64,000 nucleotides of DNA from a beta proteobacterium MWH-UniP1 (GTDB taxonomy: Bacteria > Pseudomonadota > Gammaproteobacteria > Burkholderiales > Burkholderiaceae_A), in assembly GCA_036362785.1 (NCBI GenBank), contig CP143625.1, positions 1,489,401-1,553,400 on the forward strand, written 5' to 3'. Shown here piece by piece: positions 4,221 through 17,968 of the stretch (position 1 is its first letter; each line of letters begins with the position of its first letter). The notes under the pieces were generated by a model. The model was not told the origin of the DNA. It saw nothing but the letters and a program-made list of their open reading frames with translations, and ran no database searches. The position numbers and the translations under genes are program-made.

Positions 4221-4254
4221 AGTGTAGCCCAGACGTGTTTCAGTTTTGTGTCAG
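4221..4254 (-). promoter_or_regulatory. Pho box and promoter of phoU
   Basis: On the minus strand there are two 7-mers 11 bp apart, CTGACAC (4248-4254) and CTGAAAC (4237-4243), each matching 6 of 7 positions of CTGT(A/C)A(C/T). A 10-nt spacer separates them from a -10-like TACACT (4221-4226). This is the geometry of PhoB-activated promoters, where the box replaces the -35. It overlaps the rpiA stop codon, so phoU is expected to respond to phosphate starvation independently of rpiA. Binding is inferred. Confidence 0.65.
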
Positions 4255-5336: not shown

Positions 5337-6527
5337 CTAAGTGGTCTGAAGTGCAACGCCAAGCATGACGCTCTCGGTTTTCTTCAGAATCTTCGACCAA
5401 CCCTGACCAAGGGTTACCCGCCGTGCTGCTCGGCCCAGAGAAGACCGAAACTCTGGGTCGGCAGCCAGCCGATGAGCAATCGCGACGAATCCACGCTTGT
5501 CGCCAAGACTTGCCAAACACCCGCTCTCGGCATCCCGAATCAACTGCCGCGCTGCTGCGCAGTCAAAAGCGGCCACCGCCAAGCCACTGGCCATCGCCTC
5601 CAAGGTCACGTTACCAAAGGTTTCCGTCACGCTAGGAAACAGAAAAACGTCGCCGCTCGCATAGTGGGCGGCGAGGGCCTCTCCGCGTTGGGTCCCCGTA
5701 AAAACGGCATCAGGGCAGGCCTTAGCAATCTGTTCGCGTAGCGGCCCGTCGCCAACGAAAACCAAACGAACATCACCGCCACTGTCGCGGATTTGCTGAT
5801 ACGCCTTAACGGTGAGATCCAGGTTTTTCTCTGCAGCAATTCTGCCCACGGAGAGCAGCACCGTCGTCTTCGGCCCCACACCCCAGCTACTTCGCAAGGC
5901 CAAAGAGCGCTTTGCCGGATCGAATAGATCGGTATCAATGCCCCGCGGGACCACCACCAGTCGCTGAAATCCCAGGAGAGCTAAGGATTGATGTAATTCA
6001 TCGGTGGGCACCATCGTGCACTGAGTAGTGTTGTGAAACTTACGCATGTAGCCAAGAATGGCTTTTTTAAGAAAACCAAGGTTATAAAACGCACTGTAAG
6101 CGTGAAAGTTAGTTCGAAAGTCCGACGTAATCGGAATCTTTAACTTTTTCGCAGCCTGTATTGCCGACCAGCCCAACGGACCTTCTGTCGCGACATGAAC
6201 CAGATCAGGTCGATGACGGGACCAAAGCCTGACCAAGTAACGCTTGGCTGGCAGACCAAGCTTTAATTCGGGATACATTGGAATTGGGATACCCCGCACC
6301 AGAGACTCGTTGTCCTGGCCCTCTGGCACCGGAGCCCCCAATGGGCGTGGGCGCACCAACCAGACATCATGGCCCAGCGATTGCAGCCCCTCAACAATAC
6401 GCTGCAGTGTCATGGCAACGCCGTTGACATCCGGTGGATAGGTTTCTGTAACAAACGAAATTCTTAGTTGTCGGCGGGCGCCGAGAAAGGGCCTTACTTC
6501 AATCGCAGGCAGGTCAGGTAAATCCAT
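5337..6527 (-). CDS. GT4-family glycosyltransferase, Pho-box controlled
   Basis: The 396-residue GT-B enzyme has an N-terminal acceptor domain opening with FVTETYPPDVNGVA. Its C-terminal nucleotide-sugar domain contains SVGRIAAEKN and the E-x7-E motif in TETFGNVTLEAM. This profile resembles GT4 enzymes that glycosylate diacylglycerol or phosphatidylinositol (MgtA/PimB/Agt-like). The promoter region carries tandem Pho boxes with two perfect CTGTCAT repeats. I infer a role in making phosphate-free glycolipids when phosphate is scarce, as described for agt genes in other proteobacteria. No plcP phospholipase is visible nearby. The acceptor and sugar remain unproven. Confidence 0.85.
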   Translation of the reverse strand: MDLPDLPAIEVRPFLGARRQLRISFVTETYPPDVNGVAMTLQRIVEGLQSLGHDVWLVRPRPLGAPVPEGQDNESLVRGIPIPMYPELKLGLPAKRYLVRLWSRHRPDLVHVATEGPLGWSAIQAAKKLKIPITSDFRTNFHAYSAFYNLGFLKKAILGYMRKFHNTTQCTMVPTDELHQSLALLGFQRLVVVPRGIDTDLFDPAKRSLALRSSWGVGPKTTVLLSVGRIAAEKNLDLTVKAYQQIRDSGGDVRLVFVGDGPLREQIAKACPDAVFTGTQRGEALAAHYASGDVFLFPSVTETFGNVTLEAMASGLAVAAFDCAAARQLIRDAESGCLASLGDKRGFVAIAHRLAADPEFRSSLGRAARRVTLGQGWSKILKKTESVMLGVALQTT

Positions 6528-6534
6528 GACCGCA

Positions 6535-6590
6535 AGCCTAGGGCTGCATCATAACGGTTACATGACAGAAAAAAGAAACTTCTATGACAG
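6535..6590 (-). promoter_or_regulatory. Tandem Pho boxes before the glycosyltransferase
   Basis: Reading on the minus strand, four 7-mers lie on an 11-bp period: CTGTCAT (6584-6590), GTTTCTT (6573-6579), CTGTCAT (6562-6568) and CCGTTAT (6551-6557). Two are perfect Pho half-sites. A -10-like TGTAAC (6557-6562) lies 10 nt after the first pair, and TAGGCT (6535-6540) lies 10 nt after the second pair. If the second is used, the transcript would begin at or next to the ATG at 6527. Confidence 0.7.
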
Positions 6591-6611
6591 GGTTTTAATT
6601 GCGCATTTAAT

Positions 6612-6656
6612 CTGAAAGAAATGTGTCATGAATCTGACATGATCAAAGTGCAGAGT
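6612..6656 (+). promoter_or_regulatory. Triple Pho half-site before the Mpo1-like gene
   Basis: Three 7-mers on an 11-bp period face the rightward gene: CTGAAAG (6612-6618), GTGTCAT (6623-6629) and CTGACAT (6634-6640). The hexamer 10 nt further on (CAGAGT, 6651-6656) is only a weak -10. Together with the leftward array this makes 6551-6640 a divergent Pho control region. Confidence 0.55.
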
Positions 6657-6722
6657 TCGGGCTTACCAAAAAAATTGCCAAGTATGGCGACACATGTTCA
6701 ATTGCCCGAAGGGAGAGCGCAA

Positions 6723-7163
6723 ATGGCCAACGCACTAAAACAACTCTATGAAGCGATAGAAGTGCAACGCTGGGATGATCATCGTTATTACCATCAGAGC
6801 CGAATCAACCAGTCGCTACATTTTGTGAGTGCGTTATCGTTTTTAGCGGCTTATGCATTGTTGTTCGTTGACCCTGTGATGGCAGCCTTGATTGCCTGGC
6901 TGGTGGCAATGACCACCCGGCAGGCTGGCCACTTCTTCTTTGAATCAAAAGACTATGACGTGATCAACCAAGCCACGCATGAGTACAAAGAAGCCATCAA
7001 GGTGGGCTACAACCTAAACCGCAAGGTCGTGCTGTTATCGGTCTGGGCGGCCATTCCGGTATTTGCATTTGTCTGGCCCCCCGCCATCACCTGGGCTGTG
7101 CCAGAACTCTTTGAGGATTCCGCCTTGCGAATGATCGGTATGGCCTGGTTGTTTCTGGGGGTA
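6723..7163 (+). pseudogene. Mpo1-like membrane protein, 3' end lost
   Basis: From the ATG at 6723 (ribosome site GAAGGGAGA 8 nt upstream) about 146 residues read as a membrane protein. The segment order is YHQSRINQSLHF, two hydrophobic helices, HFFFESKDYD, and another hydrophobic pair ending in AWLFLGV. The outline resembles Mpo1/YGL010w-type (DUF962-like) proteins, though I hold that assignment loosely. At about 7161 the sequence switches to the antisense of a class III aminotransferase gene. The frame stays open by chance to 7553, but that part is not protein-like for this family. The C-terminal part is therefore missing. Confidence 0.6.
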
Positions 7164-7520
7164 GCGGGCCAAACGCACTGCCTGCATCACCGCCTCGGTA
7201 CCCGACATATGAAACGACACCTCGTCCATGCCGGAGATGTCGATCAATTCGCTCACCACCTGCCCAATTGCCGGATGGTAGCCCCCCAAAAATGGACCCA
7301 AGGGTTTGGCCTGTGTCACGGCCTGATCAATTGTCTCTTTGTAAAAATCCAACCCAAAAAGATTCACGCCATAGCAGCCACTGACATCAATAAAGCGCTG
7401 CCCATCCAAATCAGTCAGCCAGGCACCCTGACTCTGCTGCCAAATGTTGCCAACCGAGAGCCGGTCCAGGCTTGCATTACGAAATTGAAACGGAATCCGA
7501 TATCGCTTGGTCAGCTGAAT
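7161..7520 (-). pseudogene. Class III PLP aminotransferase fragment (N-terminal part)
   Basis: About 120 residues match the N-terminal portion of glutamate-1-semialdehyde-type class III aminotransferases: RLSVGNIW, the strand pair WLTDLDGQRFIDVSG, the loop GGYHPAIG, and the cofactor-phosphate segment SGTEAVMQAVRLARY. Everything after RLARY, including the catalytic lysine and the large domain, is missing because the sequence joins the Mpo1-like gene there. The 5' end is also unclear. The frame runs back to a GTG at 7586 that overlaps psd, but there is no ATG near the expected N terminus (TKRYRIPFQF, 7513 leftward) and no ribosome site. It cannot encode an active enzyme as it stands. Confidence 0.75.
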
Positions 7521-7533
7521 TTCAGATGGGGAC

Positions 7534-7567
7534 GTTGTATTACACCAACATGACGAATAGATGACGA
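7534..7567 (-). promoter_or_regulatory. Triple Pho half-site between aminotransferase and psd
   Basis: On the minus strand TCGTCAT (7561-7567), TCGTCAT (7550-7556) and GTGTAAT (7539-7545) repeat every 11 bp. A -10-like TACAAC (7534-7539) lies 10 nt after the first pair. This would drive the broken aminotransferase gene. The array lies immediately before the psd ATG. Confidence 0.5.
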
Positions 7568-7568
7568 T

Positions 7569-8453
7569 ATGAATCGACTCGCGCACGCTCTCCGGTCTTT
7601 ACTGATGCAGGAAGATTTAAATTTCCTGCTCACCAACCGGATTCCGCGCTCGGCAGCGACGCGATTTATTGGCTGGTTTAGCAAGATCAAAAGCCCCTTG
7701 CTCGCAAGGGTCTCGATCTGGGTCTGGCAACGCTTTGCACCCCTTAATTTAGACGAGGCAAAGACCACTCAATTTTCCAGTCTTCACGACTGTTTTATTC
7801 GCGAACTCAAATCCGGTGTAAGGCCCATTGATGCCGACCCCACCATACTCACCAGCCCCTGTGATGCGATTATTGGCGAGTTCGGGACTATTCAAAACGG
7901 TCAGCTCTTTCAGGCGAAGGGGTTCCCATATGCACTAGCGGATCTAATTCTTGATGATCACGATGCGGCAAGGTGGAATCACGCACGTTACATCACGCTA
8001 AGAATCACCTCTTCGATGTATCACCGTTTCCATGCGCCTATCGACGGGACGCTAAAACGCGTTCGCTACATCTCGGGGGACACCTGGAACGTCAATCCAG
8101 TCGCGCTAAAACGTGTCGAACGGCTGTTCTGCAAGAACGAGCGGGCCGTCTTGGAAGTCAGCTGCCAGAACGATCAGTTCTCACTGCTGATGATTCCCGT
8201 CGCAGCAATACTTGTTGCAAGTATTCGGCTTCACAGCATTGATACAACGCTAAATCACGGCACCCCAGACGGACTGGTCGTGAACACGAATCACCGATTC
8301 GCCAAGGGAGAGGAGCTTGGGTGGTTTGAGCACGGATCCACCATCATCTTGTTCGCACCCCAAGAATTTGAGTTTCTGAGTTCTATCAAGACCGGCGACA
8401 CCATTCGCATGGGAGAAGCCCTAATGCGACTGGTCAAGCCCGAACAGGGCTAA
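7569..8453 (+). CDS. psd: Phosphatidylserine decarboxylase family protein
   Basis: The 294-residue protein has the features of the pyruvoyl-dependent decarboxylase that converts phosphatidylserine to phosphatidylethanolamine at the inner membrane. The catalytic-triad candidates are Asp99 in SPCDA, His155 in YHRFHAPIDG and the self-cleavage serine in HGST (Ser257), which becomes the pyruvoyl group. The motif is HGST rather than the LGST of the E. coli enzyme, a variation also seen elsewhere in the family. The ATG at 7569 gives normal length but lacks a clear ribosome site. It is followed directly by the phoX promoter. A housekeeping psd may also exist elsewhere; this copy sits among Pho-controlled genes. 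Confidence 0.85.
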   Translation: MNRLAHALRSLLMQEDLNFLLTNRIPRSAATRFIGWFSKIKSPLLARVSIWVWQRFAPLNLDEAKTTQFSSLHDCFIRELKSGVRPIDADPTILTSPCDAIIGEFGTIQNGQLFQAKGFPYALADLILDDHDAARWNHARYITLRITSSMYHRFHAPIDGTLKRVRYISGDTWNVNPVALKRVERLFCKNERAVLEVSCQNDQFSLLMIPVAAILVASIRLHSIDTTLNHGTPDGLVVNTNHRFAKGEELGWFEHGSTIILFAPQEFEFLSSIKTGDTIRMGEALMRLVKPEQG

Positions 8454-8486
8454 CGTCATGCTTTTGAAACATTGCCAACCTAGAGT
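8453..8486 (+). promoter_or_regulatory. Pho box and promoter of phoX
   Basis: ACGTCAT (8453-8459) and TTGAAAC (8464-8470) lie 11 bp apart, each matching 5 of 7 consensus positions. They are followed after exactly 10 nt by TAGAGT (8481-8486). Transcription would start near 8493, giving a short leader that contains the AGGAG site at 8506-8510. Confidence 0.6.
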
Positions 8487-8517
8487 CACGCCAGTGTTAT
8501 CTACCAGGAGCATTTAC

Positions 8518-10404
8518 GTGAACGAGTTTGTTGATTCCATTGCCAATCCAAGCCAGAAAACCCCAGTGTCGGATCTTAAGAACCCGATTCGACGCCGCCT
8601 GTTAATCGGCTCGGCGATCGCTGCACTCTTTAACGCCAACCCGGTCATGGCCAGCACCAGCAGGCCTCGCACTGGATTTAGCTTTAATTCCGTTTCCATT
8701 ACTCAGGCCGCCGACAACATCGTGCTGCCATCGGGCTATCGCTGGTCAGTAGTGGCCGCCTGGGGAGACCCGATTGATGGCGTTGGAAAGGAGTTGTCGT
8801 CAGACGCCAGTAATAGCGCTGCCGAACAAGAGCGCCAGTTTGGTATGCACCATGACGGTTGCGCTTTTTTCCCCGAGCAGGGCCACGATTCGACCAAAGG
8901 CCTGTGGGTGGTGAACCATGAATACACCGACGATGGCATGCTCCACCCCGGCGGGATGACGCCCTGGACCGCAGAGAAAGTGCGTAAAAGCCAGGCGGCA
9001 CACGGCGTTACCGTTAGCATGATTGCCCGCCAGCCAGATGGTGGCTGGAAGCCTATTCCCAGCCCCCTCACCCGCCGAATTACTGCGTTTACACCTTGCG
9101 ATGTAAGCGGCCCTGCTGCGGGCCACGCCCTGATGATGACGGCCGCCGACCCAAGCGGAAAGACAGTGCTCGGCACACTCAATAACTGCGCGCACGGCGT
9201 AACACCATGGGGTACTTACCTGACCTGCGAAGAAAACTTCAACGGATATTTCGTCAAGACTGGCAACCCATCACAAGAGGAACGCCGCGTTGGCATTGAT
9301 GCCAAGGGGTTCGGCTATCGCTGGCACGAGTTTGATGAGCGGTTTGACGCCAACAAACACCCTAACGAGCCAAATCGCTTCGGCTGGGTGGTTGAGATTG
9401 ATCCGCGCGACGCAAGCCGTCGGCCAGTTAAGCGCACGGCGCTCGGACGCTTTAAGCATGAAGGGGCCTGGGTCACGCTCGCCCGTGATCGGCGCGTGGT
9501 GGTATACATGGGAGACGACCAGCGTAATGAATATGTCTACAAATTTGTCTCAAAGCTGCCCTTTGATGCCCAGAAAAATCCCAAGGGCGATGGTTTGTTA
9601 GACAACGGCACGCTCTACGTTGGCCGGTTTGAGTCCAATGGCTCCGGACAGTGGGTCGCCCTTGAGCATGGCAAAAATGGGCTGACAAAAGAAAATGGCT
9701 TTCCTGATCAAGCCTACATCGCAATCAATGCACGTTTGGCTGCGGATTTTGTTGGCGCAACACCCATGGATCGACCCGAGTGGATTGCAGTACACCCCAA
9801 GTCCAATGATGTCTACGTCACCCTGACCAATAACTCGGATCGCGGGAGCAAAACACCGATTAACGCGGCCAACCCAAGAGAAAAAAATCTCATGGGCCAT
9901 ATTGTCCGGTGGCGTGAGTTCAACAAAGACGCGGCCGCACCCACATTCAAATGGGAAATTTTTGTCTTAGCCGGGGACAAAACGGCACAAGACCCCATGC
10001 TTCGCGGCAATATCAATGGCGACCAATTTGGCTCGCCGGATGGCCTATGGTTCGATAAGCGCGGTATTTTGTGGACACAGACCGACATTTCCACCAGCAC
10101 GCTCGGCAAGAACGCTTATGCCAACATGCCCAACAACTGCATGTATGCCGCTGACCCAACGACCCGTGAGTTCCGTCGGTTTTTGATTGGGCCCAAGGGC
10201 TGCGAGGTCACCGGCATTGACATCACGCCGGACTACAAAACCATGTTTGTGAACATCCAGCATCCGGGTGAGAGCCCTAGCGAGCGCGCCGATCCGGCCA
10301 ACCCAACGGCAGTTTCGTCCTGGCCAGATGCTGCCGTATATAAACGTCCTCGTTCCGCAACCATTGCCATCTGGCGTGAAGACGGCCAGGCGGTTGGCAC
10401 CTAA
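8518..10404 (+). CDS. phoX: PhoX-family alkaline phosphatase (DUF839), Tat-exported
   Basis: The 628-residue protein matches the PhoX family, which releases phosphate from organic phosphoesters using an iron-calcium centre. It has a twin-arginine leader (NPIRRRLLIGSA, about residues 22-33, then a hydrophobic stretch ending near MAS). Family segments WVVNHEYTDD, TCEENFNGYF, HEGAWVTLARD, GSPDGLWFD and NIQHPGE follow. I chose GTG at 8518 because AGGAG lies 7 nt upstream; an in-frame ATG at 8458 lacks a ribosome site and lies upstream of the predicted transcription start. Tat export suits a cofactor loaded in the cytosol. It is a classic Pho regulon member and has its own Pho box and terminator. 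Confidence 0.92.
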   Translation: MNEFVDSIANPSQKTPVSDLKNPIRRRLLIGSAIAALFNANPVMASTSRPRTGFSFNSVSITQAADNIVLPSGYRWSVVAAWGDPIDGVGKELSSDASNSAAEQERQFGMHHDGCAFFPEQGHDSTKGLWVVNHEYTDDGMLHPGGMTPWTAEKVRKSQAAHGVTVSMIARQPDGGWKPIPSPLTRRITAFTPCDVSGPAAGHALMMTAADPSGKTVLGTLNNCAHGVTPWGTYLTCEENFNGYFVKTGNPSQEERRVGIDAKGFGYRWHEFDERFDANKHPNEPNRFGWVVEIDPRDASRRPVKRTALGRFKHEGAWVTLARDRRVVVYMGDDQRNEYVYKFVSKLPFDAQKNPKGDGLLDNGTLYVGRFESNGSGQWVALEHGKNGLTKENGFPDQAYIAINARLAADFVGATPMDRPEWIAVHPKSNDVYVTLTNNSDRGSKTPINAANPREKNLMGHIVRWREFNKDAAAPTFKWEIFVLAGDKTAQDPMLRGNINGDQFGSPDGLWFDKRGILWTQTDISTSTLGKNAYANMPNNCMYAADPTTREFRRFLIGPKGCEVTGIDITPDYKTMFVNIQHPGESPSERADPANPTAVSSWPDAAVYKRPRSATIAIWREDGQAVGT

Positions 10405-10429
10405 CAAAACCGTTTAGCTGAAAGGGTTT

Positions 10430-10457
10430 GGGCCGCCGATGAGGCGGCCCTTTTTTT
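10430..10457 (+). terminator. Rho-independent terminator of phoX
   Basis: The stem GGGCCGCC (10430-10437) / GGCGGCCC (10443-10450) has a 5-nt loop and is followed by T7. Confidence 0.92.
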
Positions 10458-10498
10458 GGGAAAATAAGAGAGACCAGGCCGCTGGGCCACCCCAGCGC

Positions 10499-10532
10499 AG
10501 GTCACACAAGTGTCACAATATTTCGATACAAT
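10499..10532 (+). promoter_or_regulatory. Pho-box-like promoter of the ars operon
   Basis: AGGTCAC (10499-10505) and GTGTCAC (10510-10516) lie 11 bp apart. Exactly 10 nt later is TACAAT (10527-10532), a 5-of-6 match to the -10 consensus. The predicted transcription start (about 10538-10540) coincides with the arsR ATG at 10540. The mRNA would be leaderless or nearly so. An ArsR operator should overlap this region, but I cannot assign it with confidence. Confidence 0.6.
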
Positions 10533-10539
10533 TGGAAAC

Positions 10540-10869
10540 ATGAACAATCAGCAAGCCATCGTCGCCTTCCTCGCCCTCGGCCAGGAGTCCCGCCTGAATA
10601 TCTTTAGGCTCATCGTGCAACGCGGAGATCTAGGGCTATCCCCGGGGGAGATTGTGGAAAAACTGGGCATCCCTAACGCGACGCTTAGCTTTCACCTAAA
10701 AGAGCTCAGCCGGGCGCAGTTGATTTCGGTAGAGCGCCAAAGCCGACACTTGATCTACCGGCCCAATGCAGAGCTGGTCCAAAAGCTAAGCGGCTTCTTG
10801 CTGGATAACTGCTGCGGCGGCAAGTCATGTATTCCACAAACCACCCCTAAAAAGACGAGAACCAAATGA
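10540..10869 (+). CDS. arsR: ArsR-family arsenite-responsive repressor
   Basis: The 109-residue winged-helix repressor has a recognition segment around NATLSFHLKELSRAQ and a C-terminal cysteine cluster (Cys91, Cys92, Cys97 in CCGGKSC). This resembles the C-terminal As(III) site of the Acidithiobacillus-type ArsR rather than the classic ELCVCDL site in the DNA-binding helix. It should release DNA when arsenite binds. The ATG at 10540 gives the usual family length; it lies at the predicted transcription start, preceded only by a weak GGAAA. Its stop overlaps the arsC start by 4 nt. Confidence 0.93.
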   Translation: MNNQQAIVAFLALGQESRLNIFRLIVQRGDLGLSPGEIVEKLGIPNATLSFHLKELSRAQLISVERQSRHLIYRPNAELVQKLSGFLLDNCCGGKSCIPQTTPKKTRTK

Positions 10870-11354
10870 AGCAATACAACGTACTCTTTCTTTGCACACA
10901 CAACTCTGCCCGATCGGTTCTTGGAGAGGCGCTTGCTTCGACTCACAAAAGCGGTCGATTCGTTGGCTACTCTGCTGGCTCTTCGCCGGGCGGCCAAGTC
11001 AACCCCTTTGCACGCGAGATTGCACTTACTCTAGGCTATCCCGAAGCGAAGCTTCGCAGTAAAAGTTGGGATGAATTCGCCATAAGCGGTGCCCCCCAGA
11101 TGGATTTCATTATTACCGTCTGCGACAACGCCGCAGGCGAGATCTGTCCGGTCTGGCCGGGCAAGCCGGTGACCGCCCACTGGGGCTTTCCAGACCCACC
11201 TCAGGTCCAAGGCTCAGATGACGCCAAACGTCGCGCCTTTCGCGAAGTAATGCAGGGCCTTTCGCGACGAATTGATGCGTTAGCCGCACTCCCATTTGAA
11301 CAGCTTGATCAGATCAGCCTGCAGGCAGAAGTTCGCCGGATCGCATCGACATGA
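10866..11354 (+). CDS. arsC: Arsenate reductase, low-molecular-weight phosphatase type
   Basis: The 162-residue enzyme reduces arsenate to arsenite. The P-loop CTHNSAR begins at Cys10, and Cys86 and Cys94 in the TVCDNAAGEIC segment are placed like the redox cysteines of thioredoxin-coupled ArsC (Cys82 and Cys89 in Bacillus). It is therefore the LMW-PTP class rather than the glutaredoxin class. The length is a little above the usual 130-140 because of a C-terminal helix extension. It overlaps both neighbours by 4 nt (ATGA), so translation is coupled across arsR-arsC-acr3. A thioredoxin gene is present at 37481. Confidence 0.93.
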   Translation: MKQYNVLFLCTHNSARSVLGEALASTHKSGRFVGYSAGSSPGGQVNPFAREIALTLGYPEAKLRSKSWDEFAISGAPQMDFIITVCDNAAGEICPVWPGKPVTAHWGFPDPPQVQGSDDAKRRAFREVMQGLSRRIDALAALPFEQLDQISLQAEVRRIAST

Positions 11355-12379
11355 GTATTTTTGAACGTTATCTCACCCTGTGGGTAGCCTTGTGTATTGT
11401 GGCGGGCATTGCCTTAGGGCAGGCATCGCCAGAGTTTTTTCAAGCCGTCGGAAGCCTGGAGGTCGCGCAAGTCAACCTTCCAGTGGGACTACTGATTTGG
11501 GTGATGATTATTCCGATGTTAGTGAAGGTGGATTTCGGCGCCCTGCATCAAATTCGCCAACATGTTCGCGGGATTGGCGTGACTCTTTTTGTGAATTGGC
11601 TTGTCAAGCCATTTTCAATGGCGCTGTTGGGATGGTTGTTTATCCGCGAGCTATTCGCGCCTTATCTTCCCGCAGGCCAGATTGATAGCTATATTGCTGG
11701 CTTAATCTTGCTTGCCGCAGCCCCCTGCACTGCCATGGTGTTTGTCTGGAGCAGGCTTTCCAACGGTGACCCACTCTTCACTCTGTCACAGGTGGCGTTA
11801 AACGACACCATCATGATTTTCGCCTTTGCGCCACTGGTAGCGTTTCTATTGGGAATCTCCTCGATCACAGTGCCATGGTCGACGCTGCTGATCTCGGTAG
11901 TGCTCTACATTGTGATTCCCGTATTGATCGCCCAGGCGTGGCGAAGACATTTGCTTGCGAAAGGCGAGCAGGCCTTTGACCGCGCCATGCATTGGATTGG
12001 CCCCTGGTCCATTGCCGCCCTGCTGCTTACCCTGGTATTGCTTTTTGGTTTTCAGGGAAAGGCCATTATTGAGCAGCCATTGGTCATTGCACTCTTGGCA
12101 GTGCCAATCCTGATTCAGGTGTTCTTCAATTCTGCCTTGGCGTATTGGCTTAATCGACGGTTGGGCGAAACACATAGCGTGGCCTGCCCATCTGCATTAA
12201 TTGGCGCTTCGAATTTTTTTGAGCTTGCCGTTGCTGCTGCAATCGGTCTGTTCGGATTCGAATCAGGTGCTGCCCTGGCCACGGTCGTGGGGGTGCTGAT
12301 CGAAGTTCCGGTAATGCTCTTGGTGGTCAGTGTCGTGAACCGATCAAAAGGCTGGTACGAAAAAGGCTTGGCGAGATAG
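11351..12379 (+). CDS. acr3: ACR3-type arsenite efflux transporter
   Basis: The 342-residue inner-membrane protein has about ten hydrophobic helices. The conserved cysteine of the ACR3 family lies in APCTAMVFVWSRLSNGD (Cys126), and a second conserved segment is NDTIMIFAFAP. It extrudes arsenite made by ArsC. It belongs to the bile acid/arsenite/riboflavin transporter superfamily and is unrelated to ArsB. It is the last gene of the operon and ends right before the tRNA-His gene on the other strand; I see no terminator between them. Confidence 0.93.
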   Translation: MSIFERYLTLWVALCIVAGIALGQASPEFFQAVGSLEVAQVNLPVGLLIWVMIIPMLVKVDFGALHQIRQHVRGIGVTLFVNWLVKPFSMALLGWLFIRELFAPYLPAGQIDSYIAGLILLAAAPCTAMVFVWSRLSNGDPLFTLSQVALNDTIMIFAFAPLVAFLLGISSITVPWSTLLISVVLYIVIPVLIAQAWRRHLLAKGEQAFDRAMHWIGPWSIAALLLTLVLLFGFQGKAIIEQPLVIALLAVPILIQVFFNSALAYWLNRRLGETHSVACPSALIGASNFFELAVAAAIGLFGFESGAALATVVGVLIEVPVMLLVVSVVNRSKGWYEKGLAR

Positions 12380-12456
12380 TGGGGTGGCCGATGGGACTCG
12401 AACCCACGACAACAGGAATCACAATCCTGGACTCTACCAACTGAGCTACGGCCACC
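12380..12456 (-). tRNA. tRNA-His (GTG)
   Basis: Cloverleaf on the minus strand with anticodon GTG. The 7-bp acceptor stem is GTGGCCG with CGGCCAC, the discriminator is C paired with an encoded extra 5' G (position 12456), and the CCA end is encoded. Confidence 0.95.
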
Positions 12457-12491
12457 ACTGACTCAACAACGTTGTCCCCGGCCTGCGCCAA

Positions 12492-12568
12492 TGGCCTGCC
12501 GGGAGGGAATCGAACCCCCGACCTACAGCTTAGAAGGCTGTTGCTCTATCCGACTGAGCTACCGGCAG
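12492..12568 (-). tRNA. tRNA-Arg (TCT)
   Basis: Cloverleaf on the minus strand with anticodon TCT. The acceptor is CTGCCGG with CCGGCAG, the discriminator is G and CCA is encoded. It lies between tRNA-Pro and tRNA-His in one likely transcript. Confidence 0.95.
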
Positions 12569-12603
12569 CGGGCCGACACAACGCCAGGCTTTACAAGCTA
12601 GCC

Positions 12604-12680
12604 TGGTCGGGGTGGAGAGATTCGAACTCCCGACCCTCTGCTCCCAAAGCAGATGCGCTACCAGACTGCGCTACACCCCG
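12604..12680 (-). tRNA. tRNA-Pro (TGG)
   Basis: Cloverleaf on the minus strand with anticodon TGG, acceptor CGGGGTG with CACCCCG, discriminator A and encoded CCA. It is the first tRNA after the promoter. Confidence 0.95.
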
Positions 12681-12691
12681 AGAAGCCCGAG

Positions 12692-12720
12692 ATTATAACA
12701 GGCGCAACGGGGCTTTTTAA
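12692..12720 (-). promoter_or_regulatory. Promoter of the Pro-Arg-His tRNA operon
   Basis: On the minus strand there is a perfect TATAAT (12692-12697) preceded by TG one base upstream. A TTAAAA -35-like hexamer (12715-12720) lies 17 bp upstream. Transcription would start just before tRNA-Pro. Confidence 0.75.
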
Positions 12721-12754
12721 GCGACAATCTCGCTCCTGAATACGCCTGCGCGCC

Positions 12755-13273
12755 ATGCCCATGACAACGGTTCACCTGACCCTGATCTATATCGCCGCCA
12801 TGACCGGGGCAAACCTGTTGGTGGCCTGGCTTGGCCCCTGGTTTAGCCCCATCAATGCGTTTTTCCTGATCGGGCTGGATCTCACGCTACGAGACAAGCT
12901 GCACGACGCCTGGCAGGGGCGCCATTTGGCCCTGAAGATTGGGGGGCTGGTGGTGGTGGCAGGGCTGATTTCCTACCTGCTCAACCCGGCCAGCGGCAAG
13001 ATTGCAATAGCAAGCATCACGGCCTTTGTCTGTGCCATGACGGTCGATTCGCTGGTCTATCAGTTAATGCGGCACCGCAAATGGGTTCAGCGGGCCAACA
13101 GCTCCAACATTGCCGGTGCGGCAACCGACTCCCTGCTTTTCCCCACGATCGCCTTTGGCGGGCTACTGCCGCACATTGTGCTGCTGCAATTCGCAGCAAA
13201 GGTGGCGGGCGGAGCAGTCTGGTCTTTGGTGCTCAATCGCCTTGTTGTTCGACGACAAGCTGCGGAGCAGTAA
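12755..13273 (+). CDS. VUT-family membrane transporter (preQ-type)
   Basis: The 172-residue protein has five or six hydrophobic helices. It carries GANLLVAWLGPWFSPINAF near the start and NSSNIAGAATDSLLFPTIAFG near the end, resembling the VUT/DUF165 (YhhQ-like) family. YhhQ imports queuosine precursors; this is a shorter, divergent branch, so the substrate is not certain. Two in-frame ATGs (12755 and 12761) are both possible. It is convergent with the pst operon. Confidence 0.75.
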   Translation: MPMTTVHLTLIYIAAMTGANLLVAWLGPWFSPINAFFLIGLDLTLRDKLHDAWQGRHLALKIGGLVVVAGLISYLLNPASGKIAIASITAFVCAMTVDSLVYQLMRHRKWVQRANSSNIAGAATDSLLFPTIAFGGLLPHIVLLQFAAKVAGGAVWSLVLNRLVVRRQAAEQ

Positions 13274-13284
13274 TTCACCCGCCA

Positions 13285-13312
13285 TTAAAAATGGCCGCAT
13301 TGACATGCGGCC
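13285..13312 (-). terminator. Terminator of the pst operon
   Basis: The stem GGCCGCAT (13293-13300) / ATGCGGCC (13305-13312) has a 4-nt loop. On the minus strand it is followed by ATTTTTAA. It lies directly after the pstB stop, showing that the operon ends without phoU. Confidence 0.8.
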
Positions 13313-13318
13313 AAGCCA

Positions 13319-14098
13319 TCAGCCAAAACGACCCGTGATGTAGTCCTCGGTTTCTTGTCGTTTGGGCTTGATGAAGATTTCGTCGGTTTTTCCGAATTCA
13401 ATCATCTCGCCAAGATACATGTAGGCCGTAAAGTCGGATACCCGGGCAGCCTGCTGCATGTTATGCGTCACGATGGCCACTGTGTAGTCTGATTTCAGTT
13501 CATGCACCAGCTCTTCCACCTTGGCCGTTGAAATTGGATCCAAGGCCGAAGTAGGCTCGTCCAGAAGAATCACCGATGGCTTCACCGCCACCGAGCGCGC
13601 AATACAGAGACGCTGCTGTTGACCGCCTGATAGCGCAAGACCGCTCTGATTTAGCTTGTCTTTGACTTCGTTCCACAGTGCAGTCTTGGTCAGGGCCCAC
13701 TCCACACGAGCATCCATTTCGCCTTTTGACAACGGCTCATACAGACGAACGCCAAAGGCGATGTTGTCGTAAATGGACATGGGAAACGGCGTGGGCTTTT
13801 GGAAGACCATACCGATTTGAGCGCGGAGTAGGTTTAAGTCCTGTTTGGCGTCGAGAATGTTTTTACCGTAAAAATTGATCTCGCCTTCGGCACGTTGGCC
13901 GGGATACAGGCTGTACATCCGATTCAGCGTGCGCAGCAGCGTAGATTTACCGCAGCCCGACGGGCCGATAAATGCTGTTACTTTGCGTTCGGCAATATCG
14001 AGATTGATATTTTTGAGACCCTGGAACTTGCCGTAATAGAAATTCAGATTACGGATTTGCAGGGCGGTCTTGAAATCGAATTCGGTGTTCTGCGTCAT
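13319..14098 (-). CDS. pstB: Phosphate ABC transporter ATPase PstB
   Basis: The 259-residue ATPase powers high-affinity phosphate import. It has Walker [10 protein letters not shown] (about residues 45-53), the PstB-typical [14 protein letters not shown] loop, signature LSGGQQQR, Walker [14 protein letters not shown] and the switch histidine in VTHNMQQA. It is the last gene of pstSCAB, with a 71-nt gap after pstA, and works at the cytoplasmic face of PstCA. PstSCAB together with PhoU also reports phosphate status to PhoR. Confidence 0.97.
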
Positions 14099-14169
14099 GG
14101 TCTACTTTCTTTCATGTCTTTTTTCATCCACGGGCGGGCACTTGGCCCTGCCCCGATCACTCAACTAGG

Positions 14170-15024
14170 TTATCGCTGGCCTTTTTCTCGGAAAAACACC
14201 CGGGCCACAACATTCAGCACCAACACTGCCAGGGTGATTAACAATGCACCACCCCAGGCAAGCCGGACCCAGTTGTCGTAGGGGCTCATGGCAAACTGGA
14301 AAATCACCACGGGCAGGTTGGCCATCGGTGCGTTCATGTTGGTTGAGAAGAACTGATTATTTAGTGCCGTGAACAACAGAGGAGCCGTCTCACCGCTGAT
14401 GCGCGCAATCGCCAACAGCAGACCAGTCACCACACCTGACTTCGCAGCCCGAAGGGTGACATAAGAGGCCACTTTCCAACGGGGTGCGCCAAGCGCAAAT
14501 GCGGCCTCGCGAAGACTACCGGGAACAAGCCGAAGCATGTTCTCGGTTGTTCGCAACACCACAGGAATCGCAATCAAACACAAGGCAAGGCTGCCCGCCC
14601 AGCCCGAAAAATGCTTCTGCTGAGCAACCAGAATGGCGTAGACAAACAGACCCAGCACGATGGACGGTGCGCTTAACATGATGTCGGTCACGAATCGCGT
14701 GATTTCTGCCGTCTTACTTTCGTCACCAAACTCGGCCAAGTACACACCCGCAAAAATACCAATTGGCGTGCTCACGAACGCTGTGACGGCAATCATCATT
14801 AGACTGCCGACAATCGCGTTGGCAAGACCGCCGCCCTCAGACCCCGGTGCTGGTGTGGACTGGGTAAACAGGGCCCAATCAAGCGCAGCAAAACCATTGG
14901 CAAACAGAATGGTCAAAATCCACAGCAGGACAAATAGTCCCAGCCCCATGGCCGACATGGATAAGGTTAGCCCGATCGAGTTAACGAACTTTCTTTTTTG
15001 ATAAAGACGCTGATTGATGTTCAT
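14170..15024 (-). CDS. pstA: Phosphate ABC transporter permease PstA
   Basis: The 284-residue permease has six hydrophobic segments, with an ABC-permease coupling loop ([22 protein letters not shown]) near residues 170-190. It forms the inner-membrane channel with PstC. The start overlaps the pstC stop by 4 nt, indicating translational coupling. Confidence 0.96.
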
Positions 15025-16004
15025 GTCTTCGCTCCTTTTGCGCGCTCCGTGCGAATAATCAGAATCTTGGCGAACGCGAGCACGAAGAACGTAATCACGA
15101 ACAGCAAAAAGCCCAGCGCAAACAATGTGTTCAAGTGAAAATCACCTGCCTCGCCAAACTCATTGGCAAGGGTCGAGGCAATCGAGGTTCCCGGTGCAAA
15201 CAACGAAGGAAGCAGGCGCTGGGAGTTTCCGATCACAAAGGTGACCGCCATGGTCTCGCCAAGGGCACGGCCCAGGCCAAGCATGATGCCGCCGATCACA
15301 CCCTTGTTGGTGTAGGGCAGCACCACATAGCGCACGACTTCCCAAGTGGTGCAGCCAACCCCATAAGCGGACTCACGAAGGATTGGGGGGACGATCTCGA
15401 ACACATCACGCATCACCGCGGCGATGAACGGCAGCACCATGAAGGCCAGGATGATGCCGGCCGCCAAAATACCGATTCCGTTGGTTGCCCCGCCAAAGAG
15501 CGGCCCAATCAACGGCATTTGACCCAGCGTGGACTGTAATGCCGGCTGTCCATACTCGGCGAATAAGGGCGCAAAGATGAACAAGCCGAACATACCGTAG
15601 ATGATCGACGGTACCGCCGCAAGTAATTCAATCGCTGTTCCCAAAGGCCGACGTAGCCAAACGGGACAAGTCTCGGTAAGAAAGAGTGCGATCCCGAAGG
15701 CAAGCGGCACCGCAATCAAGAGTGCAATTGTTGCGCTGGCAATCGTTCCGTAAATTGCAATCAGCGCGCCGAATTCTTCATTAATGATGTCCCATTCGAC
15801 ACGCCATAAAAACTCAATGCCAAATTTTTGAAACGCCGGCCAGGCGTTGATAAAGAGAGACACCAAAATGCCGACCAAAGACACCAAGACCAGCAAAGAA
15901 AACACCATGGTGATCTTGTGGAAGAACCAATCCTGGGTTCGCTGGGTTTTTACGACAGCAAGCCGGCGTTGCTCCAGGGCTTGCGAATCGGCAGAGGGAC
16001 TCAT
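15021..16004 (-). CDS. pstC: Phosphate ABC transporter permease PstC
   Basis: The 327-residue permease has six hydrophobic segments after an N-terminal cytoplasmic stretch. The coupling loop is [18 protein letters not shown], and [14 protein letters not shown] is the characteristic PstC segment. It follows pstS after 96 nt containing a hairpin. Confidence 0.96.
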
Positions 16005-16043
16005 AGGTACTCCAGATAATGCTGTTTTACAGACGACACAACT

Positions 16044-16077
16044 GCGGGACCCTGATGAATGTCAGGAATTAGCCCGC
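16044..16077 (-). other. Hairpin between pstS and pstC
   Basis: Nested inverted repeats, GCGGG/CCCGC outside (16044-16048, 16073-16077) and CCTGA/TCAGG inside (16051-16055, 16062-16066), form a stem with internal mismatches and no T run. Such structures after pstS usually stabilise the pstS mRNA or reduce readthrough, giving more binding protein than permease; that role is inferred. Confidence 0.5.
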
Positions 16078-16100
16078 GGTTTTCATAAATATTGCTTTTA

Positions 16101-17129
16101 TTACTTCAGGTTAACCTGTGACCAAACCTTGTCACGAATCTGTGCAGTCAAGGCATCGGGCAGCGGCACATAATCCAGCTCGGCAGCCATACCTTTGCCG
16201 TTCTTGAAGGCCCAGTCGAAGAACTTGATTGCGTCAGCAGAAGCTGCCTTGTCTACGGGCTGTTTGTACATCAGCACAAACGTTGCGCCAGTAATCGGCC
16301 ATGCCTTTGCGCCCTTTTGGTTCACCAAGGAGATGCCCATGCCAGGAACGCTAAACCAATCTGCACCCGCAGCTGCGGCCGCAAATGTGTCGTCGTCAGG
16401 ATTGACAAACTGGTTGCCACGGTTCTGCAGTTGCAGATGGGGGATCTTGTTTTTCTTGGCGTACGCATACTCAACATAGCCAATCGCACCTTTTACACGG
16501 CTTACGTTTGCGGCAACGCCTTCGTTACCTTTGCCACCAACCGAGGAAGCTGCGGGCCACTTCACTGCAGCGCCTTTACCAACTTTGTCTTTCCACAGTT
16601 TGCTGACTTCGTTCAGGTAGTCTGTGAAAATGAAGGTAGTGCCGGAACCGTCAGCACGGTGTACCACGGTGATTGCCTGGTCAGGCAATTTCTTACCGGG
16701 GTTGAGCTTGGCGATTTTTGGGTCGTTCCACTTGGCGATATCGCCTGAGAACATTTCTGCAAGAACTTCACCGGTGACACGGAGTTCACCCGGCTTGAAA
16801 CCATCGAGGTTAATCACGGGAACAACGCCGCCGAGCACGGTGGGGAACTGAATCATGCCGTCTTTATCAAGATCAGCACCAGATACGGGCGCATCGGTGC
16901 CGCCGAAGGTCACGGTCTTGGCACGGATTTGGCGAATGCCGCCGGAAGAACCAATCGACTGATAGTTCAGACCAACATTGGTGGTCTTTTTGTAAGCTTC
17001 AGCCCACTTGGCATAGATCGGGTACGGGAAGGTTGCACCTGCGCCAGTGATGTTAGCCGCCTTAGCGGAGCTGATCACAGCAATCGCAGACACAGCCGCA
17101 ATCAGGTACTTCTTAAGCGTTGATGTCAT
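16101..17129 (-). CDS. pstS: Periplasmic phosphate-binding protein PstS
   Basis: The 342-residue protein has a Sec signal peptide (MTSTLKKYLIAAVSAIAVIS, cleavage near AKA-ANITGAG). The phosphate-binding motifs GAGATFPYPIY, GSSGGIRQI, FGGTDAPVS and RADGSGTTFIFTDYL are clear. I placed the start at 17129, with an AGGAA ribosome site; the frame is open to 17264 but the extra residues lie upstream of the likely signal peptide and cover the Pho promoter. It heads pstSCAB. Confidence 0.97.
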   Translation of the reverse strand: MTSTLKKYLIAAVSAIAVISSAKAANITGAGATFPYPIYAKWAEAYKKTTNVGLNYQSIGSSGGIRQIRAKTVTFGGTDAPVSGADLDKDGMIQFPTVLGGVVPVINLDGFKPGELRVTGEVLAEMFSGDIAKWNDPKIAKLNPGKKLPDQAITVVHRADGSGTTFIFTDYLNEVSKLWKDKVGKGAAVKWPAASSVGGKGNEGVAANVSRVKGAIGYVEYAYAKKNKIPHLQLQNRGNQFVNPDDDTFAAAAAGADWFSVPGMGISLVNQKGAKAWPITGATFVLMYKQPVDKAASADAIKFFDWAFKNGKGMAAELDYVPLPDALTAQIRDKVWSQVNLK

Positions 17130-17211
17130 GTTTTCATTCCTATTCAAGTTACCAACTGTTTTCACTTCAAACTCTCCGATCTCGGATCGCTTCCCACTAA
17201 GGGGTAGGCGT

Positions 17212-17245
17212 AATTTACGAGCCGAATGTTTCAAATTCGTGACAC
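17212..17245 (-). promoter_or_regulatory. Pho box and promoter of pstSCAB
   Basis: On the minus strand GTGTCAC (17239-17245) and TTGAAAC (17228-17234) lie 11 bp apart. They are followed after exactly 10 nt by TAAATT (17212-17217). pstS is one of the best established PhoB targets, so this site calibrates the geometry used to recognise the others in this window. Confidence 0.75.
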
Positions 17246-17287
17246 TATTGCAGCGCAAAAACAAAAAATTCTTTAAAAATCAATTAG

Positions 17288-17968
17288 TTACAGAAGCCCA
17301 AAATGTTTTCCGTAGCGGGGGTCAATCTTTTGTAGATCCAGAAGCATTAGAAAATCGGCCGAATTAAAGTCAGGGTCCCAATTGGGTTCACCACAGATTC
17401 GGGCCCCAATTCGAAGATAACCGCGAATCAGCGGGGGTACCTCTACCTTCGCTAGACGCGGGATCTCATCAAGCTGAAGCGGATGTTTAGGGAAGGCTTC
17501 CAACATTGGGTCGACCATTGCATCTTGGCGAAACTGGCCCCATAGCGAGGCGGCCAGGGCACCACCGTCTCTCATGCTGACACTGGCACAGCCAATCAGA
17601 TGCTGATGGCCGTGATGCTTCATAAACCGGGCGATTGCGGACCAGAGCAGCATGATGACCACGCCGTTACGATGCTCTGGGTGCACGCAGGATCGGCCCA
17701 GCTCGATCAAATCCGGAACATTACGTTCGATCCTTGGCATAAAGAATTCGCTCTGGCTGTAGTAGCGGCCAATGCGCTTTGCCTGATAAGGCGTCAGCAG
17801 CCGATAGGTGCCGACAATCTCTTGGGTCTGGGACAAACGAACAATCAGGTGCTCACAGTAATCATCGAATTCATCTTCATCAATACCCGATGCTGAGCTA
17901 GAAAATACCGCACCGTACTCGGCCTGAAATACAGAGAAACGCAGACGCTGTGCTGATCGTAGAGCTAC
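17288..17968 (-). pseudogene. olsB: OlsB-like N-acyltransferase (GNAT), 5' end lost
   Basis: About 226 codons are open. The protein matches ornithine-lipid synthase OlsB/hemolysin-like acyltransferases: AQRLRFSVFQAEYGA, the FDDYCEHLIV segment, VGTYRLL, ELGRSCVHPEHRNG (acyl-donor site) and HLIGCASVSM. The first visible residues lie inside the family domain, and an in-frame TGA (17969-17971) precedes them. The only ATG is at 17836, well inside the domain. The normal first 25-40 residues are missing and the DNA beyond 17953 belongs to a dgkA gene on the other strand. OlsB makes lyso-ornithine lipid, a phosphorus-free membrane lipid, which suits its place beside pst. It is probably non-functional as assembled. 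Confidence 0.75.

What the first reader, a model, noticed from the sequence alone, without database searches (positions are those of the whole stretch)
10499..10540. Arsenic resistance operon with a Pho box and a leaderless arsR
AGGTCAC and GTGTCAC repeat at 11 bp, 10 nt before TACAAT, so the ars operon appears to be activated by PhoB as well as repressed by ArsR. Starved cells raise phosphate uptake and therefore import more arsenate, so anticipatory expression of arsC-acr3 makes sense. The predicted transcript starts at or within 2 nt of the ATG, which would make arsR leaderless; only a weak GGAAA precedes it.
Basis: partly seen in the sequence, partly recalled or inferred. Interest (0 to 1): 0.7.

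Follow-up and report, generated by a model that had tools for sequence, protein, structure and literature searches.

The report
Phosphate-controlled, leaderless arsenic resistance promoter
In this freshwater-type bacterium and in most of its Polynucleobacter relatives, the switch for arsenic defence genes carries a binding site for the phosphate-starvation regulator PhoB where an ordinary promoter element would sit, so arsenic defence appears to be wired to phosphate hunger, the state in which cells also take up more arsenate by mistake.

Summary
The 18-bp Pho box (10499-10516), the -10 TACAAT (10527-10532) and the arsR ATG (10540) are exactly where stated. A Pho-box matrix trained only on pstS promoters of relatives ranks this site second of 127,966 18-mers in the window. 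Of 68 orthologous arsR promoters (mainly Polynucleobacter), 58 carry a box at the same place, against 6 of 607 other genes. Most of these operons are not beside pst genes. The stretch around the -10 is a conserved dyad, ATTTCCA-TATAAT-TGGAAAT-ATG: the likely ArsR operator. All 68 have the -10 only 6-7 nt from the start codon, so leaderless arsR is well supported; it has been measured in Cupriavidus. Elsewhere in the order the same leaderless operator is often preceded by a TTGAC -35; here the Pho box takes that place. The genome encodes PhoBR and Pst, with no Pit or Na/Pi carrier detected. 'Anticipatory' expression is not established: the anatomy fits better with PhoB-gated, ArsR-repressed control. 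No binding or expression has been measured.

The parts
10430..10457 (+). intrinsic terminator after phoX: 8 G-C pair stem then T7; separates phoX from the ars operon
10499..10516 (+). Pho box AGGTCAC-ACAA-GTGTCAC, at the place of a -35
10520..10539 (+). ArsR operator (inferred) ATTTCGATACAATTGGAAAC: an imperfect copy here (5 of 10 dyad positions paired) of the conserved dyad ATTTCCA-TATAAT-TGGAAAT, abutting the ATG
10527..10532 (+). -10 element TACAAT (TATAAT in most relatives), 7 nt before the ATG; predicted start of transcription 10539-10540
10540..10869 (+). arsR, predicted leaderless; Cys91, Cys92 and Cys97 align with the NCC..C stretch of the solved ArsR 6J05
10866..11354 (+). arsC, LMW-phosphatase-type arsenate reductase; ATGA overlap with arsR
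11351..12379 (+). acr3 arsenite efflux carrier; ATGA overlap with arsC
   Evidence: TIGR00832, 399.5 bits over cut-off 282.8
8458..10404 (+). phoX alkaline phosphatase, upstream neighbour
   Evidence: PF05787, 554.6 bits
13319..16004 (-). pstB, pstA and pstC phosphate transporter genes
16101..17133 (-). pstS; start codon placed by eye at MTSTLKK
17228..17245 (-). Pho box of pstS, GTGTCACGAATTTGAAAC, 10 nt before TAAATT: same layout as arsR

Best explanation
The arsR-arsC-acr3 operon has one composite core promoter. (1) PhoB~P binds the tandem repeat at 10499-10516 and stands in for the missing -35 (inferred from layout and conservation). (2) An ArsR dimer binds the dyad at 10520-10539 over the -10 and start point and represses until arsenite binds Cys91/92/97 (inferred). 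(3) RNA begins at or next to the A of the arsR ATG, giving a leaderless arsR; arsC and acr3 follow by translational coupling through ATGA overlaps (inferred). The net effect is arsenic defence controlled by arsenite through ArsR and gated or amplified by phosphate starvation, when Pst, the only phosphate importer recognised here, also imports arsenate. Shown here: sequence anatomy, conservation, statistics, gene content. Not shown: protein binding, start of transcription, expression.
For: Layout and rank. Own-genome boxes with the same 10-nt distance to a -10 at pstS and upstream of the apparent phoB (ATGTCACCGAGTTGTCAT-N10-TAAAGT), and a box upstream of the apparent ppk. Conservation 58 of 68 against 6 of 607 other ORFs; 55 of 68 as best box of the region against about 0.15 of 68 in Markov shuffles. 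Position is kept although in most Polynucleobacter loci no pst or phoX lies in the fetched flanks. A second ArsR lineage in the window's own genus (L074, L075; about 45% identity) carries the same box-operator-ATG layout. Related pstS promoters use GGGTCAC, GCGTCAT and once AGGTCAC as half-sites, and E. coli PhoB ChIP sites include GGTCA half-sites (PMC10294691). The dyad axis at the -10 is paired in 73% of cells against at most 50% at any other axis. The -10 is 6-7 nt from the start codon in 68 of 68, and no SD run is longer than 3. In Cupriavidus metallidurans arsR was measured as leaderless, with a start site 0 bp upstream (PMC7563307, PMC9045368). No Pit or Na/Pi carrier found.
Against: A close relative in the same genus with the same ars-pst arrangement (L026) lacks the box and has TTGACA-N17-TATATT, so the link can be lost. 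The spacer from box to -10 is 9 or 11 nt in most relatives, 10 here. One relative (L044) starts with GTG, unusual for a leaderless gene. Pho box and -35 exclude each other in counts (Fisher p 1.6e-9), but on the tree this rests on very few independent switches and cannot be tested there. The window's operator is a degenerate copy. No expression or binding data.
Confidence: 0.8

Rival explanations
1. Anticipatory control: PhoB alone switches the operon on during phosphate starvation, before any arsenic is sensed, with ArsR as a secondary brake.
For: The Pho box is strong for this genome, and an autoregulated repressor leaks, so starvation could raise basal ArsC and Acr3.
Against: The conserved ArsR dyad covers the -10 and start point, so bound ArsR should block RNA polymerase whether or not PhoB is there.
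Confidence: 0.3
2. The Pho box is bystander DNA of a phosphate gene neighbourhood (phoX upstream, pst downstream), with no role at arsR.
For: The operon lies between phoX and pstSCAB here.
Against: A terminator separates phoX from arsR. The box is kept at the arsR promoter in loci without pst or phoX nearby, and with a different ArsR lineage (L074, L075).
Confidence: 0.05
3. The repeats are bound by another regulator (another OmpR-type protein, or a second ArsR site) rather than PhoB.
For: Eight OmpR/PhoB-type DNA-binding domains are encoded in the genome.
Against: Half-site sequence, 11-bp period and distance to the -10 match the pstS, phoB and ppk boxes of the same genome and the pstS boxes of relatives. 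The repeat is direct, not a dyad.
Confidence: 0.08
4. arsR is not leaderless: an upstream promoter makes a leadered RNA, perhaps read from GTG 10510 (AGG eight nt before it).
For: The GTG at 10510 is in frame with no stop before 10540.
Against: 52 of 68 relatives have no in-frame alternative start between the nearest upstream stop and the ATG. GTG 10510 lies inside the Pho box, upstream of the -10. No other sigma-70-like promoter is found at 10300-12500. ArsR conservation begins at the ATG.
Confidence: 0.08

Closest known systems
PhoB control of arsenite oxidation genes (aioBA in Halomonas HAL1, PMC4563254; aio genes in Agrobacterium tumefaciens, reviewed in PMC7533571)
   Same: PhoBR acts directly on an arsenic gene promoter under low phosphate.
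   Different: Those are arsenite oxidase genes, and the HAL1 box lies on the antisense strand 3-21 bp before the aioB start codon. Here the target is the arsR-arsC-acr3 resistance operon and the box sits where the -35 would be.
ArsR1 control of pstS1/phoB1 in Agrobacterium tumefaciens 5A (PMC7965956)
   Same: Joins the arsenic and phosphate circuits.
   Different: Opposite direction: there ArsR represses phosphate genes; here PhoB is predicted to activate arsenic genes.
Leaderless arsR of Cupriavidus metallidurans CH34 (PMC7563307, PMC9045368)
   Same: arsR RNA starting at the start codon, experimentally mapped, in the same order.
   Different: Described there as RpoD-dependent; no Pho box is described in the passages read. 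Its promoter was not compared here.
ACR3 and PhoBR/PhoA enrichment in low-phosphate marine Prochlorococcus (PMC3686209)
   Same: Arsenite efflux as part of life under phosphate scarcity.
   Different: Gene-content evidence in cyanobacteria; no promoter mechanism in the passages read.
E. coli PhoB ChIP site inside arsR (PMC10294691)
   Same: PhoB binding near arsR.
   Different: Listed as an intragenic site with little enrichment; the paper finds most such sites transcriptionally inert. Here the site is in the promoter and conserved.

Membership tests
Pho regulon promoter (PhoB-activated) | two 7-bp direct repeats with an 11-bp period, TGTCA-like | tested here: met
   15.2 bits, second of 127,966
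Pho regulon promoter (PhoB-activated) | box about 10 nt before a -10, no consensus -35 | tested here: met
   10 nt here; no TTGACA-type promoter found; 9-11 nt in relatives
Pho regulon promoter (PhoB-activated) | PhoB and PhoR encoded in the genome | tested here: met
   OmpR/PhoB-type DNA-binding domain at 162335, a kinase-like gene next to it and a Pho box upstream; named PhoB/PhoR by sequence likeness, not by a specific model
Pho regulon promoter (PhoB-activated) | induced by phosphate starvation through PhoB | not testable with these tools
   needs expression data and a phoB mutant
ArsR-repressed ars operon | ArsR/SmtB-type regulator with arsenite-binding cysteines | tested here: met
   NF033788 55.6 bits over cut-off 55; best solved relative 6J05, NCC..C stretch aligned; Cys91, 92, 97
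ArsR-repressed ars operon | dyad operator overlapping the core promoter | tested here: met
   conserved axis; the window copy is imperfect
ArsR-repressed ars operon | arsenate reductase and arsenite efflux genes | tested here: met
   ACR3 over cut-off; ArsC hits LMWPc over cut-off
Thioredoxin-type ArsC (TIGR02691) | score over the curated cut-off | tested here: not met
Leaderless mRNA | -10 about 6-7 nt before the start codon, no Shine-Dalgarno | tested here: met
   68 of 68 orthologs
Leaderless mRNA | mapped 5' end at the start codon | not testable with these tools
   not measured here; reported for arsR of C. metallidurans

The most novel reading that the evidence does not exclude
In Polynucleobacter and a few other freshwater Burkholderiales an arsenic-only promoter was rewired by putting a Pho box in place of its -35, making arsenic resistance a member of the Pho regulon that can be induced by arsenite only when cells are phosphate-starved (a PhoB-AND-arsenite gate), and this happened at least twice with different arsR genes.
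Probability: 0.45. Interest if true: 0.65.

Novelty: new variant of a known kind. Interest (0 to 1): 0.55.

Why it matters
Arsenate enters through phosphate transporters, and arsenic and phosphate circuits are known to talk in arsenite oxidisers. A direct Pho box in the core promoter of the basic resistance operon, kept across Polynucleobacter, an abundant freshwater genus, would mean that arsenic tolerance there depends on phosphate status. That is testable with one reporter, and it matters for arsenic toxicity and speciation in phosphate-poor lakes. The promoters also form a natural series (TTGAC -35 against Pho box over the same operator) for studying how a promoter changes its activator.

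Tried and rejected
GGAAA as a Shine-Dalgarno: rejected, it is an operator arm. GTG 10510 as the start: rejected on conservation. E. coli Pho matrix: too strict for this lineage, replaced by a pstS-trained one. A strict composite pattern scan of 399 genomes found one genome and missed the window itself, so it says nothing about distribution. The simple Pho-core pattern in the own genome gave 55 sites against 35 for the reversed control, so it is not informative without promoter context. A phylogeny-corrected test of Pho box against -35 lacked independent pairs. Two papers on arsenic in marine cyanobacteria were not held. Literature searches for Pho box with ars operons found none, but the library lacks most subscription journals.

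Full report
Observation. The operon is arsR (10540-10869), arsC (10866-11354) and acr3 (11351-12379), joined by ATGA overlaps. Upstream lie phoX (PF05787) and a strong terminator; downstream lie three tRNA genes and pstSCAB on the other strand.

More than chance. A matrix built only from 20 pstS Pho boxes of related genomes scores the site 15.2 bits, second of 127,966 18-mers in the window. The same genome has boxes with the same 10-nt distance to a -10 at pstS and upstream of the apparent phoB, and a box upstream of the apparent ppk. With a matrix of recalled E. coli boxes the site is weak (6.7), because this lineage tolerates G at the second half-site position: pstS boxes of relatives read GGGTCAC, and one reads AGGTCAC.

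Conservation. A scan of species genomes gave 67 orthologous arsR loci, mostly Polynucleobacter. Their upstream sequences share one layout: Pho box, 9-11 nt to the -10, ATTTCCA-TATAAT-TGGAAAT, ATG. With the window, 58 of 68 have a box scoring at least 6 at -46 to -39 from the ATG, against 6 of 607 other long ORFs in the same loci. Counted more strictly, as the best box of the 150 bp upstream, it is 55 of 68 against about 0.15 of 68 in Markov shuffles. In most of these loci no phoX or pst gene is found in the fetched flanks, so the box is not a by-product of a phosphate neighbourhood. In some Polynucleobacter (L055, L058, L065 and kin) arsR-arsC-acr3 lies directly before pstSCAB on the same strand, with an ArsI/CadI-type gene inserted in L054.

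Operator and leaderless start. The dyad centred between -11 and -10 from the ATG pairs in 73% of cells, with no other axis above 50%. Double-sided changes number 47 against a shuffled maximum of 42, though the sequences are related; examples are AATTCC..GGAATT and AGTTCC..GGAACT. This is what a dimeric repressor site looks like. The GGAAA before the ATG is its right arm. The -10 is 6-7 nt from the start codon in all 68, and no SD run longer than 3 is seen. A scan of 399 genomes of the order finds the operator-ATG fusion in 51 genomes and 31 of 158 genera, with only a handful of matches for the reversed pattern. Most of the loci read from that scan lead into ArsR proteins. Independent experiments report arsR of Cupriavidus metallidurans as leaderless (PMC7563307) with its start site 0 bp upstream (PMC9045368). 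Leaderless arsR is therefore sound and not new.

What is particular. Among the wider set, many promoters have TTGAC at the usual -35 distance over the same operator; in Polynucleobacter and the window a Pho box holds that place. Counting promoters with a box and a -35: 61 box only, 1 both, 19 -35 only, 17 neither (Fisher p 1.6e-9). Related sequences inflate this; on the ArsR tree there are too few independent pairs to test it. The tree suggests two origins: the main clade, and L074/L075 in the window's own genus, whose ArsR is only about 45% identical but which carry the same layout. The tree is short and weakly resolved, so the number of gains and losses is uncertain. The window's close relative L026 keeps ars beside pst but has TTGACA-N17-TATATT and no box. 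The efflux pump differs too: most Polynucleobacter carry an ACR3 only about 31% identical to the window's, so the promoter layout outlived a change of pump.

Mechanism. ArsR has Cys91, Cys92 and Cys97 aligned with the NCC..C stretch of the solved ArsR 6J05; that such cysteines bind arsenite is established knowledge, not tested here. With ArsR over the -10 and PhoB in place of a -35, the plain prediction is that PhoB sets how strongly the promoter can fire and arsenite decides whether it fires. Whether starvation alone raises expression depends on leak, and cannot be read from sequence. The logic is strengthened by the absence of detectable Pit (PF01384) and Na/Pi carriers (PF02690) in this 99.8% complete genome, which leaves Pst as the recognised route for phosphate and arsenate. 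Some relatives with the box do have Pit, so this is not a general rule.

Prior knowledge. Known: PhoB control of arsenite oxidase genes (PMC4563254; PMC7533571), ArsR control of pst1/pho1 in Agrobacterium (PMC7965956), synteny of ars, aio and pst in arsenic islands (PMC3834237; PMC3954881), and ACR3 enrichment in low-phosphate Prochlorococcus (PMC3686209). In the papers searched no Pho box in the core promoter of an arsR-arsC-acr3 operon was found; the library is incomplete. I rate it a new variant of a known kind: an ArsR-repressed operon brought under PhoB.

Limits. No binding or expression data; the PhoB/PhoR and ppk names rest on sequence likeness; the genome could not be ranked as a whole; taxonomy of the window is inferred from relatives only.

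Noticed in passing
window 6551-6640: Cluster of overlapping Pho-box-like repeats between a glycosyltransferase gene (5337-6527, minus; best NCBIfam hits are glycolipid synthases, below cut-off) and a plus-strand Mpo1-like ORF; the top-scoring box of the window is here (16.0 bits). Suggests phosphate-controlled membrane lipid remodelling.
   Followed up: partly
window 5337-17836: An apparent phosphate-starvation island: glycosyltransferase, phosphatidylserine-decarboxylase-like gene, phoX, ars operon, pstBACS and an olsB-like ornithine-lipid gene.
   Followed up: partly
L055, L058, L065 (and L054, L061 without a full pstS match): In these Polynucleobacter the ars operon lies directly before pstSCAB on the same strand; in L054 an ArsI/CadI-type gene (NF041414, over cut-off) sits between arsR and arsC, and the other loci show a similar gap there.
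   Followed up: partly
L045: A contig filed as Thermoflexus hugenholtzii (Chloroflexota) carries a Polynucleobacter-type arsR locus nested among betaproteobacterial sequences: probably a mis-binned contig.
   Followed up: no
arsR promoters of relatives: The spacer between Pho box and -10 is 9 or 11 nt in most relatives (28 and 14 of 54) and 10 in only 12. The two main forms often differ by one AT unit, which may reflect slippage; why 10, the usual pstS distance, is less common is unexplained.
   Followed up: partly
window 4237-4254, minus strand: Another Pho-box-like site, CTGACACAAAACTGAAAC (13.7 bits), not examined further.
   Followed up: no
G000:C1:902208-902234: Three tandem GTCAY repeats at 11-bp steps (GTCATAAAAACGTCACATGATTGTCAC) on the minus strand, between divergent genes; the plus-strand gene at 902298 looks like a type II topoisomerase subunit. 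Possible multi-repeat Pho box.
   Followed up: no
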